Part shown: positions 32,804 through 42,399 of the stretch, in pieces
Numbering within the stretch: the first letter of the stretch is position 1
How the letters are laid out: the number at the start of each line of letters is the position of its first letter
Source of the DNA: a gamma proteobacterium symbiont of Taylorina sp.
Lineage (GTDB): Bacteria > Pseudomonadota > Gammaproteobacteria > GRL18
Reading direction: 5' to 3'
NCBI GenBank assembly: GCA_025655455.1
Contig: JAHXIV010000050.1
Coordinates: 174,338 to 238,337, forward strand
Length of the DNA: 64,000 nt
Made by a program: the position numbers and the translations under genes
The notes under the pieces: model-generated
The model's input: the letters and a program-made list of their open reading frames with translations, nothing else
Database searches by the model: none
Told to the model about the DNA's origin: nothing

Positions 32804-32848
32804 TTGACATGGTGGGGGTCGGTGGTTCGAATCCACTCGCGCCTACCA
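32804..32848 (+). other. Attachment-site repeat: 3' half of tRNA-Val(GAC), left copy
   Basis: These 45 bp run from the anticodon loop (TTGACAT) through the T-arm (GGTTCGAATCC) to the 3' CCA of a tRNA-Val(GAC). The 5' half (D-arm, AGCTCAGTTGG) is absent upstream, so this is not a functional tRNA gene. The identical 45-mer recurs at 42355-42399. The pair bounds a 9.55-kb element with a tyrosine integrase, so these are its att sites. The 294 bp between the last phage gene and this site hold no gene that I can see. Confidence 0.9.
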
Positions 32849-32914
32849 TAACTCTTTGATTTTAAAGATGTTTATGGTAACAAAATATTGGATTTAAAAT
32901 TACACATAGAGAAA

Positions 32915-32941
32915 CCAACCCATAGCCAACTTTTGGCGGTT
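32915..32941. repeat. 27-bp repeat inside the left end of the element (arm-type site candidate)
   Basis: This 27-mer (CCAACCCATAGCCAACTTTT then GGCGGTT) is identical to 42208-42234. It contains TAGCCAAC, which recurs near 42150, 42206 and 42217. Each copy lies 67-121 bp inside one att repeat, as expected for integrase or excisionase arm-type binding sites in attL and attR. Confidence 0.7.
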
Positions 32942-33052
32942 TATTTCTTCTATACTGGTATATTATTAATTCTATGGATTGCCCCAGCTATTAATCTTTA
33001 CCTGCTTTTATCTACCCCACAAAAATTTGTTCCTGAGGTCAATTTTTTGGAG

Positions 33053-33187
33053 GCGGGCTTAACATAATCAGATATTTATAATAATAACTATACACTTCTA
33101 TTTTTAGAATTTGGTATCGAAGCCACACCAGGCTTTAATAGAGAAAGAACATCCCCAGCCTATGACCGTACTGACAAGCCAGAGTTA
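33053..33187. repeat. Imperfect ~130-bp repeat, copy A (copy B near 36990-37130)
   Basis: Shared blocks in order with copy B are GGGCTTAA, ATCAGATATTT, TAATAATAACTA, GAAGCC, ACACCAGGCT, TAATAGAGAAA and TATGACCG. Identity is roughly 65-70 percent by eye. Copies A and B bracket the resolvase, adhesin and reverse transcriptase genes. In P4 satellites, ~120-bp direct repeats form the cis replication region, which is one possible meaning. Boundaries are approximate. Confidence 0.65.
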
Positions 33188-33189
33188 CG

Positions 33190-33756
33190 CTACTGAGGAT
33201 GGATATTATTTTTTTCCAGTAATCTATAGACGCTTGCTTTGCTAATTTTGTACTTGTTCATAACATCTTTAATTAACATCCCACTAGTTCTATCCTGATT
33301 TAGTTCAATAATTTGTTCATCAGTAAGCTTTGCCTTGCGCCCAAATTTTACCCCCTTGTCTTTGGCTTTGGCTATTCCCTCCAGTTGCCTTTCCTTCCTG
33401 ATCTCAGTTTCAAACTCAGCTATGGATGCTAGAATATTAAAGGTTAACTTCCCTGTTGGAGTTGTAGTATCTATATTTTGGTCGGTAACAACAAAGTCTA
33501 TTCCTTTCTCGTGCAAATCATTAACAATCTTTGTTAAGTGATAGGTAGAACGTGCAAGTCTATCAATTTTAGTAATTACGAGAATATCGCCTTTTCTGAG
33601 GTACTCAAGGCAAGCTTTTAATTCTGGTCTATCTGCTGTTGTACCGGTTAGTTTCTCAGAATAAATGGTATCACACCCATGATGATTTAATTTGTCCATT
33701 TGGATTTCAAGGCTTTGACCTCTAGAACTAACTCTTGCATAACCTATGATACTCAT
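33190..33756 (-). CDS. Serine recombinase, resolvase/invertase family
   Basis: The start is ATG 33756, after an AAGGAG site on the minus strand. The product is 188 aa, the usual length for small resolvases and invertases. The N-terminus IGYARVSSRGQSLEIQ carries the catalytic serine. KIDRLARSTYHL holds the conserved Arg residues, and the C-terminus (GMLIKDVMNKYKISKASVYR) is the DNA-binding helix-turn-helix. It could resolve co-integrates or invert DNA, but no paired inversion sites were seen. It lies at the cargo end of the second element, opposite to the tyrosine integrase. Confidence 0.9.
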   Translation of the reverse strand: MSIIGYARVSSRGQSLEIQMDKLNHHGCDTIYSEKLTGTTADRPELKACLEYLRKGDILVITKIDRLARSTYHLTKIVNDLHEKGIDFVVTDQNIDTTTPTGKLTFNILASIAEFETEIRKERQLEGIAKAKDKGVKFGRKAKLTDEQIIELNQDRTSGMLIKDVMNKYKISKASVYRLLEKNNIHPQ

Positions 33757-34235
33757 AACATTCTCCTTATCATATGTCTCATAAATCCTTAGACATTTCA
33801 ATAAAGTATACTTTTTAAGACATTGTTTTTATTTAGGTAAGAATTGTTAGTTTTATACGGGTATATTATTAACTCTATTAATTACTCCAGATTTTGTTTC
33901 TCCATAAAATTATAGTAAGTTCAAAATAATCATACTGGCATATCTCGCACCAAAAATTGTCCGGTTCCGTCCCATTGCACCAATTGGAGGTATTATCAAT
34001 AATATAATTTAGCGTAGAATGCTGCCATTTCAAAATCAATGAAATATTAAGAAAATCAGGATTGTTATTATGATTACTATTACAAACTCCAAGAATTTAA
34101 GGTCGCTGTATGCTAAAAAAGTATAGTGATTACAGTTGATATTTATCAAGCATTACTAATTGAACCTAAAATTAGTACTAAAGTACAGTAGACACTAAAA
34201 ATTATAGTAGTATAATTGGAATGGTTATTACATTT
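33757..34235. other. Non-coding stretch upstream of the adhesin riboswitch
   Basis: About 480 AT-rich bases lie between the divergent resolvase and the adhesin leader. I see no open gene. The adhesin promoter and the resolvase promoter should lie here. A TTGAAC-type hexamer near 34159 and several TATAAT-like boxes (e.g. near 34212) are candidates, but none is decisive. Confidence 0.4.
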
Positions 34236-34310
34236 CAGACAAAGCCTACCCCTCTAATAATGAGGAATCGGAAAGCCACAGGTTTCTATTTGAGACAGCT
34301 GGGTTGCCTG
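34236..34310 (+). promoter_or_regulatory. Probable cyclic-di-GMP-I (GEMM-I) class riboswitch
   Basis: P1 pairs CAGACAA (34236-34242) with TTGCCTG (34304-34310), with one A-C mismatch. A short hairpin CCTC/GAGG follows the 5' CAAAGCC. The segment GGAAAGCCACAGG leads into a second stem (GTTTC/GAGAC) closed by CAGCTGGGTTGCC. The order CAAA-CC, hairpin, AAAGCCAC-GG, hairpin, AGC-GGGTTGCC is the GEMM-I consensus. A small GCTC/GAGC hairpin lies between the aptamer and the start codon. It lies 45 bp before a secreted adhesin gene, a typical target. Ligand choice (c-di-GMP or cGAMP-type) cannot be decided by eye. Confidence 0.6.
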
Positions 34311-34355
34311 TATTTTGCTCATATTGAGCCATATCGTTAGTACGGGGTAAGTATC

Positions 34356-35369
34356 ATGAAGACATATCAATTGTTCCTAACTCTACTGTGCTCTATTTTT
34401 CTCTTTATGAGTACTCAAGCCATCGCTGATGACAATGACCTCGATAAAAGTAAAGCTCTGATGATTTCTGAAATACACACTGCCTATGCTGTGAATGACG
34501 AAGGCGTGGATGTAATCACTTTAACTATCAAAGGGATTAATTTTTTAGATGAAAAAGGTGAAGTACCTTCTATTTCAGTCGGTCATAACCGTTTGGATTA
34601 TACTGTAGATAGTTTCAACGACAACGAGCTTGTATTAACTGCTACCCTAGAAGATGGTGATTACCTGATAATGGTAAGTAGTGATAATAAATTTAAAGAT
34701 GAAAAAACTGCTTTTTATGATTTAACGATTGGTGCTGTAGGACCACAAGGATCAGCAGGTGCTGATGGTACTAATGGTGCTGATGGTGATATGGGTGCTA
34801 AGGGTGATACTGGAGCAACAGGTGCTAAGGGTGATACTGGAGCAGCAGGTGCAACAGGATCAGCAGGTACTGATGGTACAAATGGTACTGACGGGGTATC
34901 AGGTAAGGTGGCATTAGCGGGTCTAATGTGTGGAGAGGATCAATACCTTCAAGGATTTGATGTTAATGGTGATTTAGTTTGTGTTAATAATTCAGCGGGC
35001 GCGACTGTATTTCAGGTAGGAATTACAGGTCCTTCCGGTGGTACGGTGTTTAGGGTATCCCATGACGGTTTGACTGGTGTTGAGGTTAACTTAAATGCAC
35101 AGGGGGTAATGACATGGAATGATGCTAATGATACCGCGACAGCGTATGCTGGTTGGCGATTACCCACGTTGGAGGAATTAGATTTGATTGATCAGATAGA
35201 GCAGTTCCCGAAGTTTGATGTAGTAGGAGAAGCCGCGATTTTTTGGTCGTCAGAATTAGGTGCGGGAGATTATTATTATATGATATGGTATCGAGTTTTG
35301 AGTGGCGTAAAACACGGGCGGGGCGACATGGATTATCTTTTTAACTCAGTATTCGTTAGTGATTTTTGA
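34356..35369 (+). CDS. Secreted collagen-like adhesin with Lcl-type C-terminal domain
   Basis: The product is 337 aa. Residues 1-24 are a Sec signal peptide (LTLLCSIFLFMSTQAIA). Residues ~28-125 look like an IPT/TIG-type beta-sandwich (ITLTIKGINFL). Residues ~129-180 are Gly-X-Y collagen-like repeats (MGAKGDTGATGAKGDTGAAG). The C-terminal ~120 residues match the Lcl_C/DUF1566 domain (GGTVFRVSHDGLTGVEV, AGWRLPTLEELDLI, FWSSE), a C-type-lectin-like fold known from the Legionella collagen-like adhesin. The final ~45 residues, where DUF1566 proteins are most variable, are atypical here. A reverse transcriptase gene points at its 3' end. Confidence 0.88.
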   Translation: MKTYQLFLTLLCSIFLFMSTQAIADDNDLDKSKALMISEIHTAYAVNDEGVDVITLTIKGINFLDEKGEVPSISVGHNRLDYTVDSFNDNELVLTATLEDGDYLIMVSSDNKFKDEKTAFYDLTIGAVGPQGSAGADGTNGADGDMGAKGDTGATGAKGDTGAAGATGSAGTDGTNGTDGVSGKVALAGLMCGEDQYLQGFDVNGDLVCVNNSAGATVFQVGITGPSGGTVFRVSHDGLTGVEVNLNAQGVMTWNDANDTATAYAGWRLPTLEELDLIDQIEQFPKFDVVGEAAIFWSSELGAGDYYYMIWYRVLSGVKHGRGDMDYLFNSVFVSDF

Positions 35370-35396
35370 GTAGCCAGTTTAACGGTTTTTTCAATA

Positions 35397-36527
35397 TTAA
35401 CTTGTTAGACCCAAATTCGGGTTTTGAGCGATGGGTAATTTACAGGGTTTGTTCGTAATATCATTCAATAGGGCGAGTACCGAATCTGTTATTGATTGTG
35501 TTATCCCAATATACCATCCTTTCCACCGCTTGATATACTGACCAAGCCTGTTGTTTCTTTTTGAAGCATCAGGCTCTTGCTCATAAAGCCGGTTCAGTTT
35601 ATCGCTAAAACGCTGTAATGCTTTTTTGCAAGGTAACACAGTCCCTGCCACAAACTGCAATCCTAAAAAGTCAAACCCCTTAGAAATCTTTCCCATACTG
35701 GTTTTATCCGGATGTTGTTTCAAACCCAGTGCTGAGATGATGGCATTAAATTTAGCAATAGCTCTGCGGTTTTTCCAACGGGTTTTCGTTAGTATTAAGA
35801 TATCATCCATATAACGAATATAATAACAATCTTCCTGCTCAAGGGCTTGATCCAGTTCGTACAAATAAAAAGCCCCTAATAACGGGCTTAATGGACTGCC
35901 TCTGGGGAGACCTTTAATTATATCCTGATAAAGTCCACCCCTTTCAACTGTGCGGTGCATACTAAACCAGAGTAAACGCAATAAGAATTTATCTTTAATA
36001 TACAGCGCACTTTTATCTATCAGTTGATGGTGGTCAATGGATTCATAATAATGATAAATATCGGTGCGAAAAACAAATTGATACTCTGGCAGAGCTTGTC
36101 TTATTTCTTTACAGACTTGTTTGATTCCTCCATTACCTTTCAAATGCATACATCTGGTGGAACTGGGTAATAGCTGACTAAGTATTTGAGCCAGTGCTTT
36201 TAATACGATAGCATCGAGTGTACCCCATAGATGAATTGTTTCACCGGATGCTTTTTTTATTCTTTGTAGAGGACTAAAATGATATTGCTGCGTAATAAGC
36301 AGTTGATATAAACGGGGTAACACAACAAGCCAATGAAAACAAACATCCCAAATATCTGTATTGTAGTGATAGTGTCGGCGTTGTTTGCATGCCCACTTGA
36401 AACAGAATTCCAGTAATTCTAAAGAAAATAGTTGGTTTGATATAGGCATTTGTAAATGTTCGCTGTCTGGAAATTTAAGATTGAGTTGTACTGGCTCAAA
36501 ATTGCAGGAATAGTTCATTAGCGTCAT
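35397..36527 (-). CDS. Reverse transcriptase, retron/group-II-like, unclassified
   Basis: The product is 376 aa. RT motifs are in order: motif A VFRTDIYHYYESID, motif B GLPRGSPLSPLLGAFYLYEL, motif C YIRYMDDILIL (catalytic Asp-Asp) and motif D/E QHPDKTSMGKISKGFDFLGL. A short thumb-like C-terminus (YIKRWKGWYIGITQ) follows. There is no maturase X or HNH endonuclease domain, so it is not a standard group II intron protein, and motif B lacks the GNLTSQ typical of diversity-generating retroelements. It converges on the adhesin gene with a 27-bp gap. The template and function are unknown. Confidence 0.9.
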   Translation of the reverse strand: MTLMNYSCNFEPVQLNLKFPDSEHLQMPISNQLFSLELLEFCFKWACKQRRHYHYNTDIWDVCFHWLVVLPRLYQLLITQQYHFSPLQRIKKASGETIHLWGTLDAIVLKALAQILSQLLPSSTRCMHLKGNGGIKQVCKEIRQALPEYQFVFRTDIYHYYESIDHHQLIDKSALYIKDKFLLRLLWFSMHRTVERGGLYQDIIKGLPRGSPLSPLLGAFYLYELDQALEQEDCYYIRYMDDILILTKTRWKNRRAIAKFNAIISALGLKQHPDKTSMGKISKGFDFLGLQFVAGTVLPCKKALQRFSDKLNRLYEQEPDASKRNNRLGQYIKRWKGWYIGITQSITDSVLALLNDITNKPCKLPIAQNPNLGLTS

Positions 36528-36546
36528 GCTACTCTTTGTTTTAAAT

Positions 36547-36688
36547 TGTCAGCAGTTTGGTATTAGGAGATAATTATTTCTTCACTCAATAATATATTAT
36601 TAAAAATATTCATACAATTCATAATCACTGTTATAGATCAAAATTGCCGATGCAAGTTGCAGATAGTAGTAGGGTTAAATTGCTGACA
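36547..36688. repeat. 142-bp segment with 12-bp terminal inverted repeats upstream of RT
   Basis: TGTCAGCAGTTT at 36547-36558 and AAATTGCTGACA at 36677-36688 are inverted copies with one mismatch. The AT-rich segment between them has no gene. It could be a MITE-like remnant or the structured leader or template RNA of the reverse transcriptase that starts at 36527. No target-site duplication was seen. Confidence 0.5.
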
Positions 36689-36705
36689 CAACATATTATT
36701 ACACC

Positions 36706-36909
36706 TTAGTTATCTATCCCACGATAATGTTTCATTCTATATATAGTATTTCTATGACGCCCCAAAATCAACCCCAGTTTATATGCGCTGTATAAGCCTA
36801 TAGCAGGATATATTATATTAGAGTCTATCTGATTGTATCCCCAAAAAAGCCCCGTATATAGGGCTATTTTGACCTTGAGTTCAATTTTTAAACAGTCGAT
36901 AGATACCAA
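36706..36909 (-). CDS. Doubtful small protein with HTH-like segment
   Basis: A 67-aa frame begins with TTG and contains YKLGLILGRHRNTIYRMKHY, which could be a helix-turn-helix. There is no good ribosome site and no family match known to me. It lies between the RT leader and the presumed replication region. It may be non-coding. Confidence 0.25.
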   Translation of the reverse strand: MVSIDCLKIELKVKIALYTGLFWGYNQIDSNIIYPAIGLYSAYKLGLILGRHRNTIYRMKHYRGIDN

Positions 36910-37485
36910 GTTACAATAATTATTATTAAAATTAACTTTTGAACTAAATCCATAATATTAGACAGGTGTATAATTACCTCCCCCCCCTTAGATTTGGGCT
37001 TAAAATAACCATGTATCAGATATTTTTAATAATAACTAGACATTAGTAAAAATATTATCTTGTAGAAGCCGTACACCAGGCTATAATAGAGAAATTATCC
37101 CCCACCTGTATGACCGAACTGTATAGATACACTATATATAGCTATGCTTATTGTTACCCCCGTTTTATACTGCTTGTTATTACTGCCCCGCTTATTTATC
37201 TATTGGTTGCCGTATAGCCCCAGTTCCCCCCAAATTTATGGCCTATAGGAAATATTGTACTCAAGTACAAAATAAGCCAATACTCTAAAATTAGGGGGGG
37301 AAGCTATTAAACATACTACTCCCCCTAATATAGTAATAAGTAGAATAGAGAGAATAACTGGAATAAGTGGCACAGGTCAATAACCACATGGGTTATAACA
37401 CACCAAGCATAGCTATACCCCTCCTTTCTCGGCTTCGCTTATTCCACTTATTCCCTACTCAGGGGGCGGGGTAATACTATATACA
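36910..37485. other. Non-coding replication/packaging region candidate with nested inverted repeats
   Basis: The stretch holds repeat copy B (about 36990-37130), C8 and G7-8 homopolymer runs, and three inverted repeats. These are ATTAGGGGG/CCCCCTAAT (37290-37298 with 37321-37329), GGAATAAGTGG/CCACTTATTCC (37360-37370 with 37444-37454), and ATAACC/GGGTTAT around 37380-37396. It directly follows the primase-helicase gene, the usual place of an origin in satellite elements. No gene is seen. Confidence 0.5.
36990..37130. repeat. Imperfect ~130-bp repeat, copy B
   Basis: This partner of 33053-33187 is in the same orientation. The best blocks are ATCAGATATTTTTAATAATA, then ACACCAGGCTATAATAGAGA and TATGACCGAACTG. 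The spacing between blocks differs by a few bases, so the copies are old or under selection only in parts. Confidence 0.65.
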
Positions 37486-39420
37486 TTAATAAACCCTGTC
37501 ACTCTTGATATAAGTGATTTTATTATTAGCAGGGTGTTTTGTTGCATCCCACAATCTACATGTACCTTTAGAAAAGTAGTCCAAGACTCTTTTAATAGTT
37601 TTCTTCCCGACACTGGCTGTATTATGGCAGTAATTTAAAATATCAATCTGAATATTTTTACCTTGTTCCAAAGCATCAAGAATAGCTAATATGGTATCTT
37701 CATCTTTAGATTTCTGAGCCTCACATCTAAGTGATTCAGAAACATCTTCATAGTCAGTTTGTGATACGTTTCGTTCAGGATCAATTTCAAAAGTAATAGG
37801 AACAAAAGTTCCCCTTGTTTTATCAGGTCTAGTTGAAACGGTTATACTTCCATCAGGGTTCTCTTTTGGGATCATATAAATTAGTTCATCAACATCTGAT
37901 CTTAAATCACCTGTTCCCTCAAATATCAGCTCACCATCATTGATAGTGTATTTGTTAGTATGACACAGTAAGATTATCGTCATACCTTTAGCTGAAAGCC
38001 CTCTGAGGGTTTCATACAGTCTTTTTGACTGAGTCTTATTAATAACATCTGTCATCTTTTTAAGTGTGTCAAAAATAAATAGAGTGTCGTTATAATTCCG
38101 ATCTACCTTGTTCATTTGTTCCAGAATATTAACAATATCAGTCATTGATTTTCCAACTTGCATATCTGGTAATAAAAGTTTAAATCCATATTTGTTTGCT
38201 TGTTGATGATAGTATTTTGCATCAACATCTGGCACATCTGCATTTACATAAAAGACGTTAATATCTTTAGCTAGTTGTCCAGCAATATCCATAAGAATAG
38301 TAGTTTTTCCTCCATTTGAGGGAGCGGGGATTGCTATGACATGGCCTTTAATAATTAGGTTATCAAATAACCATTCTGGATCAGAAATATTCGCCATATC
38401 TTCATCTGAAACAGTAAAATCATCCACCCAAGACATATCTAGAATAGCCTCTGTAGGAATCAGGGTAGTTGATATTTGGGGTAATAATTTATTATATTCA
38501 TCAACTGTTCTACCATCAGGTGCAAGTGAATTCTCTGCAGCATAGATAACAGCCTCATTAAATGATAAATCTAACCTATGCATCATTACATCAAAAGAAC
38601 TATGAGCATTACCATCACAAAGAGGATCGCTTGAGTGATGAGAATACATCATGCTATCTTTAATACTAATACCTGCATTACCTGAATCTGAAGTATGAGA
38701 AAGCCATTTATCACCCTGCTTAGTATCACCTCTCAGTCTTAGCTCATCTTCTATAGTATGTTGCTCGTTATAAGCCTCTATGGGGCTTATTTGGCCATTA
38801 GAAAGACTATTACATACCTTCGGCTTATAATCCCTAAAAGCTTGTTTCTCATCTTCCTTGCACACCCATCCATCTGGTATGTTTTCCTCAAAATAATCTA
38901 TAACCTGCTGAGCATGTTCCACTGTCAGAATAGGAAGCTCATTAAGTAATATGTGAGTTAATTCTTCCAATGGATAATAATAAGGCTCATCAGTATCAGG
39001 GTGAGTACCATAGGCAACAAACTGCTGTCCATCTCCAAGTATTTCTATCTGATTTTTTGTCTCCTGATTTTCACCTGACCAGTAAGTTTTACTGACCATC
39101 TTCTTAAAAGGTTTAACTGTACGGTAAATTAACAGTCTTTTGGGTTTTTGGCCTACTCGAACAACTGTTTTACCAATAAGATCATAACAGAATTGTTGCA
39201 TACGTACAGCAAGCCTTCTGCTTCTAATATCAATATCAATACAGGGAGTATTCTTTGTTAATATTCCAACAGAATAACCTTGATTCTGATATTCTTGTAG
39301 CTCAACATAACTATGATCTTCTTTGTCAGCCCAACCAGATAATATTGGCCTTTTACTGTTTGGGGCGACAGGTGTTAAGGCATAACCGTTTTCTGATAAA
39401 GTATGGAAAGGATAGCTCAT
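37486..39420 (-). CDS. Satellite replication protein: primase-polymerase plus RepA-like helicase
   Basis: The product is 644 aa. Residues 1-190 look like an archaeo-eukaryotic primase/PrimPol domain (NGYALTPVAPNSKRPILSGW; acidic pair in CIDIDIRSRRL; then EILGDGQQFVAYGTHPDTDE). Residues ~350-590 are a RecA-type hexameric helicase with Walker A PAPSNGGKTT and Walker B TLFIFDTLKK, and HTNK near the sensor. The C-terminus is a small helical DNA-binding domain. This matches the multifunctional initiators of P4-like satellites and integrated plasmids. It overlaps the upstream gene by 4 bp. Confidence 0.85.
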   Translation of the reverse strand: MSYPFHTLSENGYALTPVAPNSKRPILSGWADKEDHSYVELQEYQNQGYSVGILTKNTPCIDIDIRSRRLAVRMQQFCYDLIGKTVVRVGQKPKRLLIYRTVKPFKKMVSKTYWSGENQETKNQIEILGDGQQFVAYGTHPDTDEPYYYPLEELTHILLNELPILTVEHAQQVIDYFEENIPDGWVCKEDEKQAFRDYKPKVCNSLSNGQISPIEAYNEQHTIEDELRLRGDTKQGDKWLSHTSDSGNAGISIKDSMMYSHHSSDPLCDGNAHSSFDVMMHRLDLSFNEAVIYAAENSLAPDGRTVDEYNKLLPQISTTLIPTEAILDMSWVDDFTVSDEDMANISDPEWLFDNLIIKGHVIAIPAPSNGGKTTILMDIAGQLAKDINVFYVNADVPDVDAKYYHQQANKYGFKLLLPDMQVGKSMTDIVNILEQMNKVDRNYNDTLFIFDTLKKMTDVINKTQSKRLYETLRGLSAKGMTIILLCHTNKYTINDGELIFEGTGDLRSDVDELIYMIPKENPDGSITVSTRPDKTRGTFVPITFEIDPERNVSQTDYEDVSESLRCEAQKSKDEDTILAILDALEQGKNIQIDILNYCHNTASVGKKTIKRVLDYFSKGTCRLWDATKHPANNKITYIKSDRVY

Positions 39421-39734
39421 ATAACCACCTCTTCATCAGGTGAAGAAATAAGAGTATAAAGAGCAATATTTCTATAAATCCGCCCAGATAGATCAATAAC
39501 CGTAACATAGTGGGTTTCAATATTATATCCTTCTGCAATTAATTCATTTATACGGGCTGATGGGTTTGTAATACCTATATCCCTAAGCTCCAGTGATAAG
39601 CCTGATCCTCCACTATTTAGGATATCTAGTATTAGTTCTTTTTGTCCTACACCCGTATTTTTACCTGATGTTTTACTACTGTAGATAATTTTATAGTGCA
39701 TTTTGCTTCTGTGTTGTTGTTCTATGGACTGCAT
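39417..39734 (-). CDS. Small winged-helix protein upstream of primase-helicase
   Basis: The product is 105 aa. QKELILDILNSGGSGLSLEL followed by DIGITNPSARINELIAEGYN reads as a winged helix, similar to the small helix-turn-helix proteins that precede satellite replication genes. Its stop overlaps the start of the primase-helicase (ATGA-like), so they are coupled. A regulatory or origin-binding role is inferred. Confidence 0.6.
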   Translation of the reverse strand: MQSIEQQHRSKMHYKIIYSSKTSGKNTGVGQKELILDILNSGGSGLSLELRDIGITNPSARINELIAEGYNIETHYVTVIDLSGRIYRNIALYTLISSPDEEVVI

Positions 39735-39846
39735 GATATTATCCTTTGGCAGTGCTACAATAACACCAGCCGTTTATGTAATAGTTTTCGGTTAGACAAT
39801 AGAGGCTCTTATTCTCAGTAAGAGCCTTTTTATTGATGTCAGATAT

Positions 39847-40047
39847 TTAACTGTGAGTATGTTCGTGGGTTCTGCCGTTAATAAAGAATTCTATATCACT
39901 TTCTTTATATCTAACTGCTCTCCCGACTTTTATATATGGTAGATTATATCTGCCAGTACAACGCCATACTGAAAGCGTCCCTTCAGATATATTCAGCTTG
40001 TTTGCGGTTTGTTCTGGTGTTAATAATGCTGGTGTATTGGATACCAT
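39847..40047 (-). CDS. AlpA/excisionase-like helix-turn-helix protein
   Basis: The product is 66 aa. LLTPEQTANKLNISEGTLSV and the wing IKVGRAVRYKESDIEFFI are the typical MerR-like excisionase/AlpA fold. In P4-like elements such proteins activate integrase expression or promote excision. It lies between the integrase-proximal gene and the replication genes, which fits that role. Confidence 0.85.
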   Translation of the reverse strand: MVSNTPALLTPEQTANKLNISEGTLSVWRCTGRYNLPYIKVGRAVRYKESDIEFFINGRTHEHTHS

Positions 40048-40150
40048 GTTGTTACCCCTCTGTAGTTATTGAATATGTAGGGATAGTGTAAATTAAGATG
40101 TTGTGAATGTGTGGCAACTGCCAAAAGATAAATGGCAGAGGAAAGGTTGG

Positions 40151-40876
40151 TTATTTAAGTTGATCTAGGAGTTTTGAGCCTTCATCCATTAGGAGTTTTA
40201 GTCCTATTCCTATTCTATCTCTATTAGTTCTTACGCTTATACCTGTGTCTTGTTCCTTGGGAATGTATGTTGATAATAATTCAGCTATTTTACTATTGTT
40301 AGGTTTGTCTTTAGTCCCATATCCCCCCCCGACATTCTTATCTGCTAGAGCAATAGCTAACAGTCCAATAACTGTTAATAACCTATCCTTTTCTCTATCC
40401 TGTAATGGCTTGCTTGGTGGAGGAGTTGTATTATTGATGTTCAGTAATGGCTTGCTTGGTGGAGGAGTTGTATTATTGATGTTCAGTAATGGCTTGCTTG
40501 GTGGAGGAGTTATATTATTGATGTCGTCAGAATCATTGAGAAAGTTGGGTATAGATAGATTGTTAGTCCTCAACCATGTAACTATATCCTTTTTTAGTAT
40601 ATGAACATTACTGTAGGCATGATCTTTTTTGATGAATAAATCTGAAATACATACTTCACCCTTGATTATCTCTATTTCTATGAGATCCTCAATAATTTTA
40701 AGTTCCCTTGTAGCTATAGCCTCTAATATTTTAGTTAAAATTGATTTGTACTGAGATATGCTTTCATTTGTTTGTAAATCATCAATAGTATCTACATTTA
40801 GAATTATTAGGGCTGTATCTTCAGGAGTAAGGCCACATTCCCCTGTTAAATATTTTAACTTTTCATCATTATTCAT
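40151..40876 (-). CDS. Hypothetical element protein with Pro-rich tandem repeats
   Basis: The product is 241 aa. The N-terminal half is helical and acidic (YLTGECGLTPEDTALIILNV). The middle has three copies of a 14-residue unit (NINNTTPPPSKPLL) encoded by 42-bp tandem repeats. The C-terminal part is a helical domain (RLLTVIGLLAIALADKNVGG). The Pro-rich repeats form a flexible spacer between two folded parts. Its stop is 35 bp left of the integrase 3' end, in the same orientation. The function is unknown. Confidence 0.7.
   Translation of the reverse strand: MNNDEKLKYLTGECGLTPEDTALIILNVDTIDDLQTNESISQYKSILTKILEAIATRELKIIEDLIEIEIIKGEVCISDLFIKKDHAYSNVHILKKDIVTWLRTNNLSIPNFLNDSDDINNITPPPSKPLLNINNTTPPPSKPLLNINNTTPPPSKPLQDREKDRLLTVIGLLAIALADKNVGGGYGTKDKPNNSKIAELLSTYIPKEQDTGISVRTNRDRIGIGLKLLMDEGSKLLDQLK
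40403..40524. repeat. 42-bp tandem repeat (about 2.9 copies)
   Basis: Copies start at 40403, 40445 and 40487, and the last is truncated near 40524. The unit begins TAATGGCTTGCTTGGTGGAG on the plus strand. The unit length is divisible by three, so copy-number change would lengthen or shorten the Pro-rich linker without a frameshift. Confidence 0.9.
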
Positions 40877-40910
40877 TTATTTACACCGTCCAGATAATTT
40901 GAACTTGAGG

Positions 40911-42155
40911 TCAAACCACCGCATTAATAGGTATTACATTACTTGTTTGTTCTGGCAATGCCACATTTAGGATCTTATTTGTGATTGCTTGCATTGGCTC
41001 ACGTAGGCGGTCAATGTCTAAAATAATATAGCCTTCGGTTACATCTGCTTTGCTAATATGGTTCACCAGCCTTTTTAAAGCGTACTCTCTTATACCTATA
41101 CTTTCTGCAATAGTAAGAAAAGTTCTTCTTAGATCATGTAGGGTGAAGGGAATACCAGAATATTCTGCTACTTTCTTAATTACTCTTTTGGGTTCTGCTA
41201 AGTGACCTGATTTACCCGCCCCCTGAAAAACAAACTCACTATTATTACCTGTTCTGGATTCAAATAGATCATAAAGATAGTCTGATAAGGGTAGGGTGTG
41301 AGGGTGTCCATTTTTAGTGATAGGGATATATAAAGTACGTTCTTTAAAATTGATATGATCCCATTTAATACGATCAGCCTCGCGCCTTCTTAACCCCGTG
41401 AATAAGACTACTAGCAGATAATCTCTTACAACTTCATTATTAGGTGAGCCGTTCCAGGCAGATAGAGTTGAAACAGCCTCAAACCATGTTTTCATATCTG
41501 CTGGCTTAATATAGCTCTGCTTACGTTGTTCAGGGAACCATGCTTTTATATGGTTAAGTCTTGTAATAGGGTTATGTAATATTATTGGTTCTCCTTGCTC
41601 ATTTTCATATTGCCCCATAGCATAAGAAAATATAGATCCTAGTGCTTTCATTACATTATTGGCCTGTACGGGTGTTGTTTCCCCAATTGTCCTATGCTTT
41701 CTTTCTACCATATCACGACTAATATCTAACAGAGGTGTTTTACCCCAAGTTTTAAGGTGGTTTTTTAAGGCGAGGTACTTTTCTATTGATCTGGGCTTTA
41801 ATTGGTTATGTGAGGTTATATAGCCGTCTATAGCATCATTTAGCGTTATGCCTCTGGCTCTATCTGCTTTTTTCTTTGCGTTGGGATCTATGCCCTCGCT
41901 CATTTGATTTAGTACTTCTCTGGCTTTCGTTCTAGCCTGCTCAATAGTCATAGCAGGATAACTACCTAGAGTTATATCTCTGGTTTTTCCATTGAGCTTA
42001 CGGATCACCATAAAAGACTTTTTACCCGTGGGGGTTACTCTGAGTTTTAACCCTGATCCTTGCTGGTGCTGATCATGGTATAACATACGCTTTTCAGATG
42101 TGGGTAGGGTATCAAGACGCTTTACTGAGAATATAATTTTGTTCATTCTAGCCAA
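40911..42155 (-). CDS. Tyrosine integrase, P4-like (DUF4102 type)
   Basis: The product is 414 aa, the normal length. The N-terminal domain (SGLKLRVTPTGKKSFMVIRK, then DITLGSYPAMTIEQARTKAR) is the DUF4102 arm-binding domain of P4-type integrases. The catalytic residues are visible: Arg in TGLRRREADRI, His-x-x-Arg in LHDLRRTFLTIAE, the second His in LVNHISKADV and Tyr in TEGYI. It starts 200 bp from the right att repeat and drives integration at tRNA-Val(GAC). Confidence 0.93.
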   Translation of the reverse strand: MARMNKIIFSVKRLDTLPTSEKRMLYHDQHQQGSGLKLRVTPTGKKSFMVIRKLNGKTRDITLGSYPAMTIEQARTKAREVLNQMSEGIDPNAKKKADRARGITLNDAIDGYITSHNQLKPRSIEKYLALKNHLKTWGKTPLLDISRDMVERKHRTIGETTPVQANNVMKALGSIFSYAMGQYENEQGEPIILHNPITRLNHIKAWFPEQRKQSYIKPADMKTWFEAVSTLSAWNGSPNNEVVRDYLLVVLFTGLRRREADRIKWDHINFKERTLYIPITKNGHPHTLPLSDYLYDLFESRTGNNSEFVFQGAGKSGHLAEPKRVIKKVAEYSGIPFTLHDLRRTFLTIAESIGIREYALKRLVNHISKADVTEGYIILDIDRLREPMQAITNKILNVALPEQTSNVIPINAVV

Positions 42156-42207
42156 CCTCTTTTTATAATGAAATAAAGCTATGTAATGCTTTTAGGTTCA
42201 TTCCTAG

Positions 42208-42234
42208 CCAACCCATAGCCAACTTTTGGCGGTT
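42208..42234. repeat. 27-bp arm-type repeat, right copy
   Basis: The sequence is identical to 32915-32941. It lies between the integrase start and the right att repeat, with two more TAGCCAAC motifs just to its left (near 42150 and 42206). This clustering supports an integrase or excisionase binding array. Confidence 0.7.
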
Positions 42235-42354
42235 CATTAGGGTAAGATTGGTTAATGTTGATTAATAATCAATATATCTTAACCTATTGATTTGTTAATG
42301 TAAAGTGGCTACAATTGGTTTTAATTAAAGTTGGTTAAAGTGGTGAGATAATAT

Positions 42355-42399
42355 TTGACATGGTGGGGGTCGGTGGTTCGAATCCACTCGCGCCTACCA
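42355..42399 (+). other. Attachment-site repeat: 3' half of tRNA-Val(GAC), right copy
   Basis: This is the second exact copy of the 45-bp tRNA-Val 3' half (see 32804-32848). Again the 5' half of the tRNA is missing upstream, where only element DNA is found. It marks the right boundary of the element. Confidence 0.9.

What the first reader, a model, noticed from the sequence alone, without database searches (positions are those of the whole stretch)
34236..36527. Riboswitch, collagen-like Lcl adhesin and convergent reverse transcriptase as one mobile module
The adhesin ends in a C-type-lectin-like Lcl_C/DUF1566 domain, the class of domain that diversity-generating retroelements (DGRs) mutate. 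A reverse transcriptase with YMDD starts on the opposite strand and ends 27 bp from the adhesin stop. The last ~45 adhesin residues are atypical for the family. Their DNA has a G/C-rich burst (around 35300-35335) in AT-rich surroundings, as adenine-directed mutagenesis could leave. Against a canonical DGR, motif B is PRGSPLSPLL rather than GNLTSQ, the RT is antisense, and no template repeat was found by eye. This could be a non-canonical diversification or an unrelated RT function coupled to a surface protein.
Basis: partly seen in the sequence, partly recalled or inferred. Interest (0 to 1): 0.85.

Follow-up and report, generated by a model that had tools for sequence, protein, structure and literature searches.

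The report
Adhesin paired with UG4 reverse transcriptase
A small mobile element carries a surface-adhesin gene, probably switched by a signalling-molecule riboswitch, end to end with a reverse transcriptase of an unsolved class (UG4); in other bacteria the same class also sits against changeable surface proteins, so it is not a classical diversity-generating retroelement but may still serve the adhesin beside it.

Summary
The anatomy is real. A c-di-GMP-I-type riboswitch candidate lies 43 bp before a 337-aa collagen-stalk adhesin, and the adhesin stop is 27 bp from the end of a convergent reverse transcriptase (RT). The module is cargo of a 9.55-kb integrative satellite bounded by 45-bp tRNA-Val att repeats, in tandem with a prophage. 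The RT is not a DGR enzyme. It is UG4 (PADLOC 375 bits; next class 127), with motif RGSPLSPLL. No template repeat was found here or in the own genome, nor A-biased variation in 13 relatives; the G/C 'burst' is unremarkable.

RT-surface-protein pairing recurs widely. UG4 was known to neighbour fimbrial genes (66%). Here 22 of 26 plasmid UG4 loci have an exported adhesin within about 130 bp of the RT 3' end. Partners elsewhere include invasin-like and PEP-CTERM proteins. Klebsiella and Cedecea have RT and fimbrial tip in one open frame. RTs 92-98% identical sit beside unrelated tips, with homology breaking at the RT end. Control operons without RT also have unrelated tips, so a role in tip exchange is plausible but unproven.

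The parts
32849..42399 (.). 9.55-kb integrative satellite element that carries the module
   Evidence: 45-bp perfect repeats at both ends, third copy at a tRNA-Val 43 kb upstream, integrase, primase/AAA, AlpA-like HTH
32804..32848 (+). att copy (3' end of tRNA-Val) between prophage and satellite
   Evidence: perfect 45-nt repeat; tRNA-Val(gac) complete only at G000:C2:163731-163807
42355..42399 (+). att copy at the far end of the satellite
33067..33173 (.). left copy of an imperfect direct repeat flanking recombinase + adhesin + RT
   Evidence: 93% over 28 nt and 76% over 49 nt at the same offset of 3948 bp
37015..37121 (.). right copy of that direct repeat
33190..33801 (-). serine recombinase (resolvase/DNA invertase family)
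   Evidence: Pfam Resolvase 8.3e-44, PHROG DNA invertase 1.4e-68
34189..34216 (+). promoter-like hexamers TAGACA-16-TATAAT just before the riboswitch
   Evidence: 11 of 12 matches, best in the region; consensus match only
34235..34312 (+). c-di-GMP-I-GGC riboswitch aptamer (candidate)
   Evidence: Rfam 37 bits, E 2.7e-6, full length, below gathering score; same element before paralogous adhesins
34356..35369 (+). collagen-like surface adhesin, 337 aa, signal peptide; collagen 34737-34904; weak Lcl_C-like domain 35103-35291
35370..35396 (.). 27-bp gap between the two convergent stop codons
35397..36527 (-). UG4-class reverse transcriptase, 376 aa; YMDD at 35802-35813
   Evidence: PADLOC RT_UG4 E 4.5e-113, 375 bits; RVT_1 1.4e-20; alignment of 21 UG4 RTs; tree
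37486..39420 (-). primase-polymerase/AAA helicase-like protein of the satellite
   Evidence: Pfam Prim-Pol 1.3e-7, AAA_25 1.9e-9
39847..40047 (-). AlpA/excisionase-like HTH protein of the satellite
   Evidence: Pfam HTH_17 3.3e-9
40911..42155 (-). tyrosine integrase of the satellite
   Evidence: Pfam Phage_integrase 1.7e-16, Arm-DNA-bind_3 1.8e-19

Best explanation
A satellite element delivers a surface-adhesion cargo: a collagen-stalk adhesin, probably controlled by c-di-GMP through a riboswitch, and a UG4-class RT whose gene ends against the 3' end of the adhesin gene. UG4 RTs are recurrent partners of exposed adhesins (shown). Inferred mechanism: the RT acts in cis on its own transcript, whose 3' part runs into the adhesin (sense when the genes point the same way, antisense when they converge, as here). 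The resulting adhesin cDNA enters recombination with other alleles, so that adhesin tips can be renewed or swapped. This is adhesin-directed like a DGR but without a template repeat or adenine mutagenesis. Identity of the parts and the pairing: about 0.9. That the RT acts on the adhesin sequence at all: about 0.4. The cis-cDNA version: about 0.2.
For: UG4 by a wide margin (375 vs 127 bits). In 22 of 26 plasmid UG4 loci an exported adhesin lies within about 130 bp of the RT 3' end: co-directional fimbrial tips, or convergent invasin-like proteins L049-L051 and a fimbrial-operon protein L052. Across other genomes: PEP-CTERM proteins L126, L128, L140, L141, L151, L186; Invasin_D4 proteins in Budvicia. 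RT and fimbrial tip in one continuous frame in L154, L155, L159. Pairs with RTs 92-98% identical lose all homology at the RT 3' end (L056/L058, L055/L088, L087/L088, L058/L085). Salmonella L049/L051: RT region 95%, invasin tips 12% aa identity. Budvicia L144/L146, one genome: RT side about 91%, adhesin N-half 68-98%, C-terminal tip unalignable. RT under purifying selection (dN/dS 0.07-0.17 in most Escherichia pairs). No terminator-like site between the two genes here.
Against: Four related fimbrial operons without the RT also have mutually unrelated tip adhesins, so tip variability does not need UG4. PEP-CTERM partners have the conserved sorting signal, not a variable tip, next to the RT. Several UG4s, above all in cyanobacteria, have no recognised surface partner. 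No template RNA, no cDNA product and no strain-level variation for the window locus itself. The tips differ by ordinary divergence with many synonymous changes, as plain homologous recombination would give.
Confidence: 0.4

Rival explanations
1. The RT is a passenger with an independent job (for example anti-phage defence, or DNA repair like G2L4 RT). It sits in exchangeable adhesin loci because these are islands of mobile, recombining DNA; tips vary by ordinary recombination and selection.
For: Control operons without RT have equally unrelated tips. UG4 aligns with group II-like RTs including G2L4; G2L4 RT repairs double-strand breaks (PMC12337344). PADLOC lists UG4 among its DRT models.
Against: The close fit of the RT 3' end to an exported gene in different phyla and partner families, and the RT-tip single frames, exceed what passengers in plastic DNA should show. 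UG4 has YMDD, not G2L4's YIDD.
Confidence: 0.4
2. The RT regulates the adhesin: cDNA or antisense RNA from the convergent RT gene dampens or switches adhesin expression.
For: Convergent, often overlapping 3' ends (L049, L051, L052, L126, L128, L140, L141).
Against: The co-directional and fused arrangements in fimbrial operons do not produce antisense RNA; an RT is not needed for antisense control; the window adhesin is probably already riboswitch-controlled.
Confidence: 0.15
3. A canonical or degenerate DGR with the adhesin 3' end as variable region.
For: C-terminal Lcl_C-like domain (weak), a class of DGR target; RT next to it.
Against: UG4 RT, SP in motif B, no template repeat in the module or own genome and none with A bias in relatives; variation by tip replacement.
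Confidence: 0.02

Closest known systems
UG4 reverse transcriptases (unknown group 4)
   Same: RT sequence class; neighbour of surface-structure genes (fimbrial domains near 66% of UG4 RTs in complete genomes, PMC8934634)
   Different: partner is a collagen-like adhesin, genes converge, chromosomal satellite element; deep-branching lineage outside the enterobacterial fimbria/invasin clade
Diversity-generating retroelements
   Same: RT beside a surface protein with a possible C-type-lectin-like C-terminal domain
   Different: RT class, motif B, no template repeat, no adenine-specific variation, convergent gene order
G2L4 group II-like RT (DNA repair)
   Same: group II-like RT of bacteria; its solved structure is a sequence relative (48.6 bits)
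   Different: YMDD instead of the defining YIDD; adhesin partner
Lcl collagen-like adhesin
   Same: collagen repeats followed by an Lcl_C-like domain (NCBIfam adhesin_Lcl E 1.7e-12, far below its cut-off)
   Different: N-terminal domain shared with own-genome paralogues; Lcl_C match weak; tail atypical

Membership tests
UG4 RT | best and strong match to the UG4 profile | tested here: met
   375 bits vs 127 for the next class
UG4 RT | fimbrial genes in the neighbourhood (66% in the literature) | tested here: not met
   neighbour is a collagen-like adhesin, no usher or chaperone seen; a frequent trait, not a defining one
DGR | near-identical template repeat differing from the variable region at A positions | tested here: not met
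   A-biased scans of 33000-39500 and 13 relatives; own genome BLAST (a 104-contig draft)
DGR | DGR-clade RT with SQ in motif B | tested here: not met
   RGSPLSPLL; UG4 profile match; no DGR reference RTs were available for the tree
DGR | Avd accessory protein | not tested
   no dedicated profile search was made
DGR | C-type-lectin fold at the target's C terminus | tested here: inconclusive
   Lcl_C 19.9 bits below cut-off; structure model pLDDT 43
G2L4 RT | YIDD active site | tested here: not met
   YMDD or FMDD in all 21 UG4 rows aligned; definition from PMC12337344
G2L4 RT | RT3a plug with 9-aa insertion | not tested
   no structural alignment was made
Retron | msr-msd RNA next to the RT | tested here: inconclusive
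   no Rfam RNA near the RT beyond chance hits; retron RT profiles match far below cut-off
c-di-GMP-I-GGC riboswitch | Rfam gathering score 59 bits | tested here: not met
   37 bits, E 2.7e-6, full length; paralogues 43.7-44.8 bits: likely a divergent member, kept as candidate
P4-like integrative satellite | integrase, tRNA att repeats, primase-helicase, AlpA-like regulator | tested here: met
   dependence on the neighbouring prophage not tested

The most novel reading that the evidence does not exclude
UG4 is a second, mechanistically different class of RT-based adhesin diversification: an RT that copies the adhesin sequence attached to the 3' end of its own transcript and promotes replacement of adhesin tips, spread across fimbriae, invasins, PEP-CTERM proteins and collagen-like adhesins.
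Probability: 0.25. Interest if true: 0.92.

Novelty: new variant of a known kind. Interest (0 to 1): 0.62.

Why it matters
UG4 RTs have no known function. The survey turns 'often near fimbrial genes' into a sharper statement: in many loci the RT 3' end abuts an exposed adhesin, in several unrelated adhesin families and in both deep RT branches, with RT-adhesin single frames in Klebsiella and Cedecea. That makes the function testable in laboratory enterobacteria. If the RT acts on the adhesin, it would be a new way for bacteria to change what they stick to.

Tried and rejected
A-biased template/variable repeat scans in the window and 13 relatives: only collagen repeats, gene duplications and RT fragments. 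Template elsewhere in the genome: nothing beyond short chance matches apart from the locus itself. Viral contigs and the first genome scan with the single protein: no relatives. Phages: only distant RTs. E. coli strain-level comparison: UG4 in 8 of 5,426 genomes with the best query, too rare. AlphaFold of the adhesin C-terminal domain: unusable, so no fold search. Profile comparison of Budvicia tips with Lcl_C: no match. Special conservation at the RT 3' end: none. The apparent 98% match after the adhesin in L055/L087 looked like an insertion sequence and was not counted as a flank. The G/C burst was rejected as ordinary.

Full report
WHAT IS THERE. The adhesin (34356-35369, +) and the RT (35397-36527, -) converge with 27 bp between stop codons. 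The adhesin has a signal peptide, an N-terminal domain, a collagen repeat (aa 128-183, E 5.8e-9) and a weak Lcl_C match (E 9.5e-4, 19.9 bits against a cut-off of 34.9). A c-di-GMP-I-GGC aptamer aligns over its full length at 34235-34312 (37 bits, E 2.7e-6), below Rfam's gathering score. It gains credit from position and from paralogues: two other collagen-like adhesin genes of this genome carry the same riboswitch upstream (44.8 and 43.7 bits) and a third a weaker c-di-GMP-I match. These paralogues resemble the adhesin in the N-terminal part and the collagen stalk but have unrelated C-terminal domains, so a constant stalk with exchangeable tips is a general feature of the family here, also without an RT.

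THE CARRIER. A perfect 45-nt repeat at 32804-32848 and 42355-42399 is the 3' end of tRNA-Val, whose complete gene lies 43 kb upstream. The stretch between the two window copies holds an integrase, a Prim-Pol/AAA protein, an AlpA-like HTH and a serine recombinase. The stretch before it includes a phage tail gene. So the module is cargo of a satellite integrated in tandem with a prophage. An imperfect direct repeat of about 107 bp (33067-33173 and 37015-37121) brackets recombinase, adhesin and RT.

THE RT. It matches the UG4 profile at 375 bits; the next class, UG17, scores 127. NCBIfam models (group II, Drt3a, retron) match far below their cut-offs. Motif B is RGSPLSPLL and the active site YMDD. 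In a tree of 57 UG4-like RTs the window RT is a long, deep branch in a mixed half, apart from the enterobacterial fimbria/invasin half (100/100 split). The labels used on that tree are my own readings of the neighbour genes, and the tree holds no DGR, retron or group II reference rows.

NOT A DGR. Scans that tolerate A-specific mismatches found no template repeat in 33000-39500 nor in 13 UG4 relatives. The own genome, a 104-contig draft, holds no second copy of the adhesin 3' end. The G/C-rich stretch is ordinary for this gene.

THE PAIRING RECURS. The literature records fimbrial domains near 66% of UG4 RTs (PMC8934634). I looked at the exact junction. In 22 of 26 plasmid loci an exported protein lies within about 130 bp of the RT 3' end. 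Most are candidate tip adhesins of chaperone-usher fimbriae, transcribed in the RT's direction; two match the MrpH_C fimbrial adhesin domain, one of them below its cut-off. Three Salmonella loci have an inverse autotransporter and one Photobacterium locus a fimbrial-operon protein, convergent with the RT and overlapping it in three of the four. A scan of 84,980 genomes with an alignment brought 80 further loci. There the gene at the RT 3' end is a PEP-CTERM surface protein in six loci, an Invasin_D4 protein in Budvicia, or another exported protein; in Marinomonas eCIS-core or cadherin-like fibre genes lie nearby. In Cedecea and two Klebsiella genomes, K. pneumoniae ATCC 13883 among them, RT and fimbrial tip form one uninterrupted frame of 694-720 codons; in the Cedecea one no ATG lies between the two halves, though internal GTG/TTG starts are possible. 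Exported-like proteins are common in these loci (56% by a lax predictor), so the weight lies on the identity and closeness of the partner, not on export alone. Many loci, the cyanobacterial ones above all, have no recognised surface partner.

THE TIP IS WHAT CHANGES. RT genes 92-98% identical are followed by unrelated tips, with homology ending within a few tens of bases of the RT stop (L056/L058, L055/L088, L087/L088, L058/L085). L055 and L087 are 97-99% identical up to the tip's signal peptide, then fall to about 58%. Salmonella L049 and L051 have RT regions 95% and platforms 85% alike but tips of 12% identity; L049 itself holds two adhesin copies identical upstream and diverged at the tip. 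In one Budvicia genome, copies L144 and L146 share the RT side (about 91%) and the adhesin N-terminal half, while the C-terminal tip cannot be aligned. The RT itself is under purifying selection (dN/dS 0.07-0.17 in most Escherichia pairs).

THE CONTROL. Four fimbrial operons of the same family without UG4 also carry mutually unrelated tips. Tip variability therefore does not require the RT. In PEP-CTERM partners the RT touches the conserved sorting signal. These two facts hold the mechanistic claim down.

READING. Shown: UG4 identity, mobile carrier, recurrent adjacency of the RT 3' end to adhesins, sharp homology breaks there, RT conserved as an enzyme. Inferred: that the RT works on the adhesin sequence, perhaps in cis on the 3' part of its own transcript, which holds the adhesin in sense or antisense. 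The main rival is a passenger RT with another function. I rate the two about equal.

Noticed in passing
32804-32848, 42355-42399; G000:C2:163731-163807: A 43-kb prophage and a 9.55-kb satellite sit in tandem at one tRNA-Val, sharing the 45-bp att sequence.
   Followed up: partly
33067-33173 and 37015-37121: Imperfect direct repeats bracket the serine recombinase, adhesin and RT; perhaps ends of a cassette within the satellite.
   Followed up: partly
32810-32956 (-) and L063:1507-1655 (-): Rfam HPnc0260 antisense RNA hits overlap the tRNA-derived att sites; probably a tRNA-related match rather than an antisense RNA.
   Followed up: no
L154:4959-7118, L155:4995-7076, L159:4959-7070: UG4 RT and fimbrial tip adhesin form one continuous reading frame in Cedecea and Klebsiella, including K. 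pneumoniae ATCC 13883.
   Followed up: partly
L145, L153, L162, L163, L165: A UG4 branch in Marinomonas and Pseudoalteromonas; in two of these loci eCIS-core or cadherin-like fibre genes lie nearby.
   Followed up: no
G055 (L043-L048): One Thiotrichaceae genome holds several intact and broken UG4 RTs, one inside DNA that seems to split a leucine-rich-repeat gene.
   Followed up: no
L118:2092-2169, L120:1049-1129, L116:2332-2410: c-di-GMP-I type riboswitches precede other collagen-like adhesin genes of the same genome.
   Followed up: partly
40402-40527: Three tandem copies of a 42-bp unit inside the 241-aa ORF 40151-40876 of the satellite.
   Followed up: no
35870-35889 (-): Terminator-like hairpin inside the RT coding region, matching an sRNA family weakly.
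   Followed up: no
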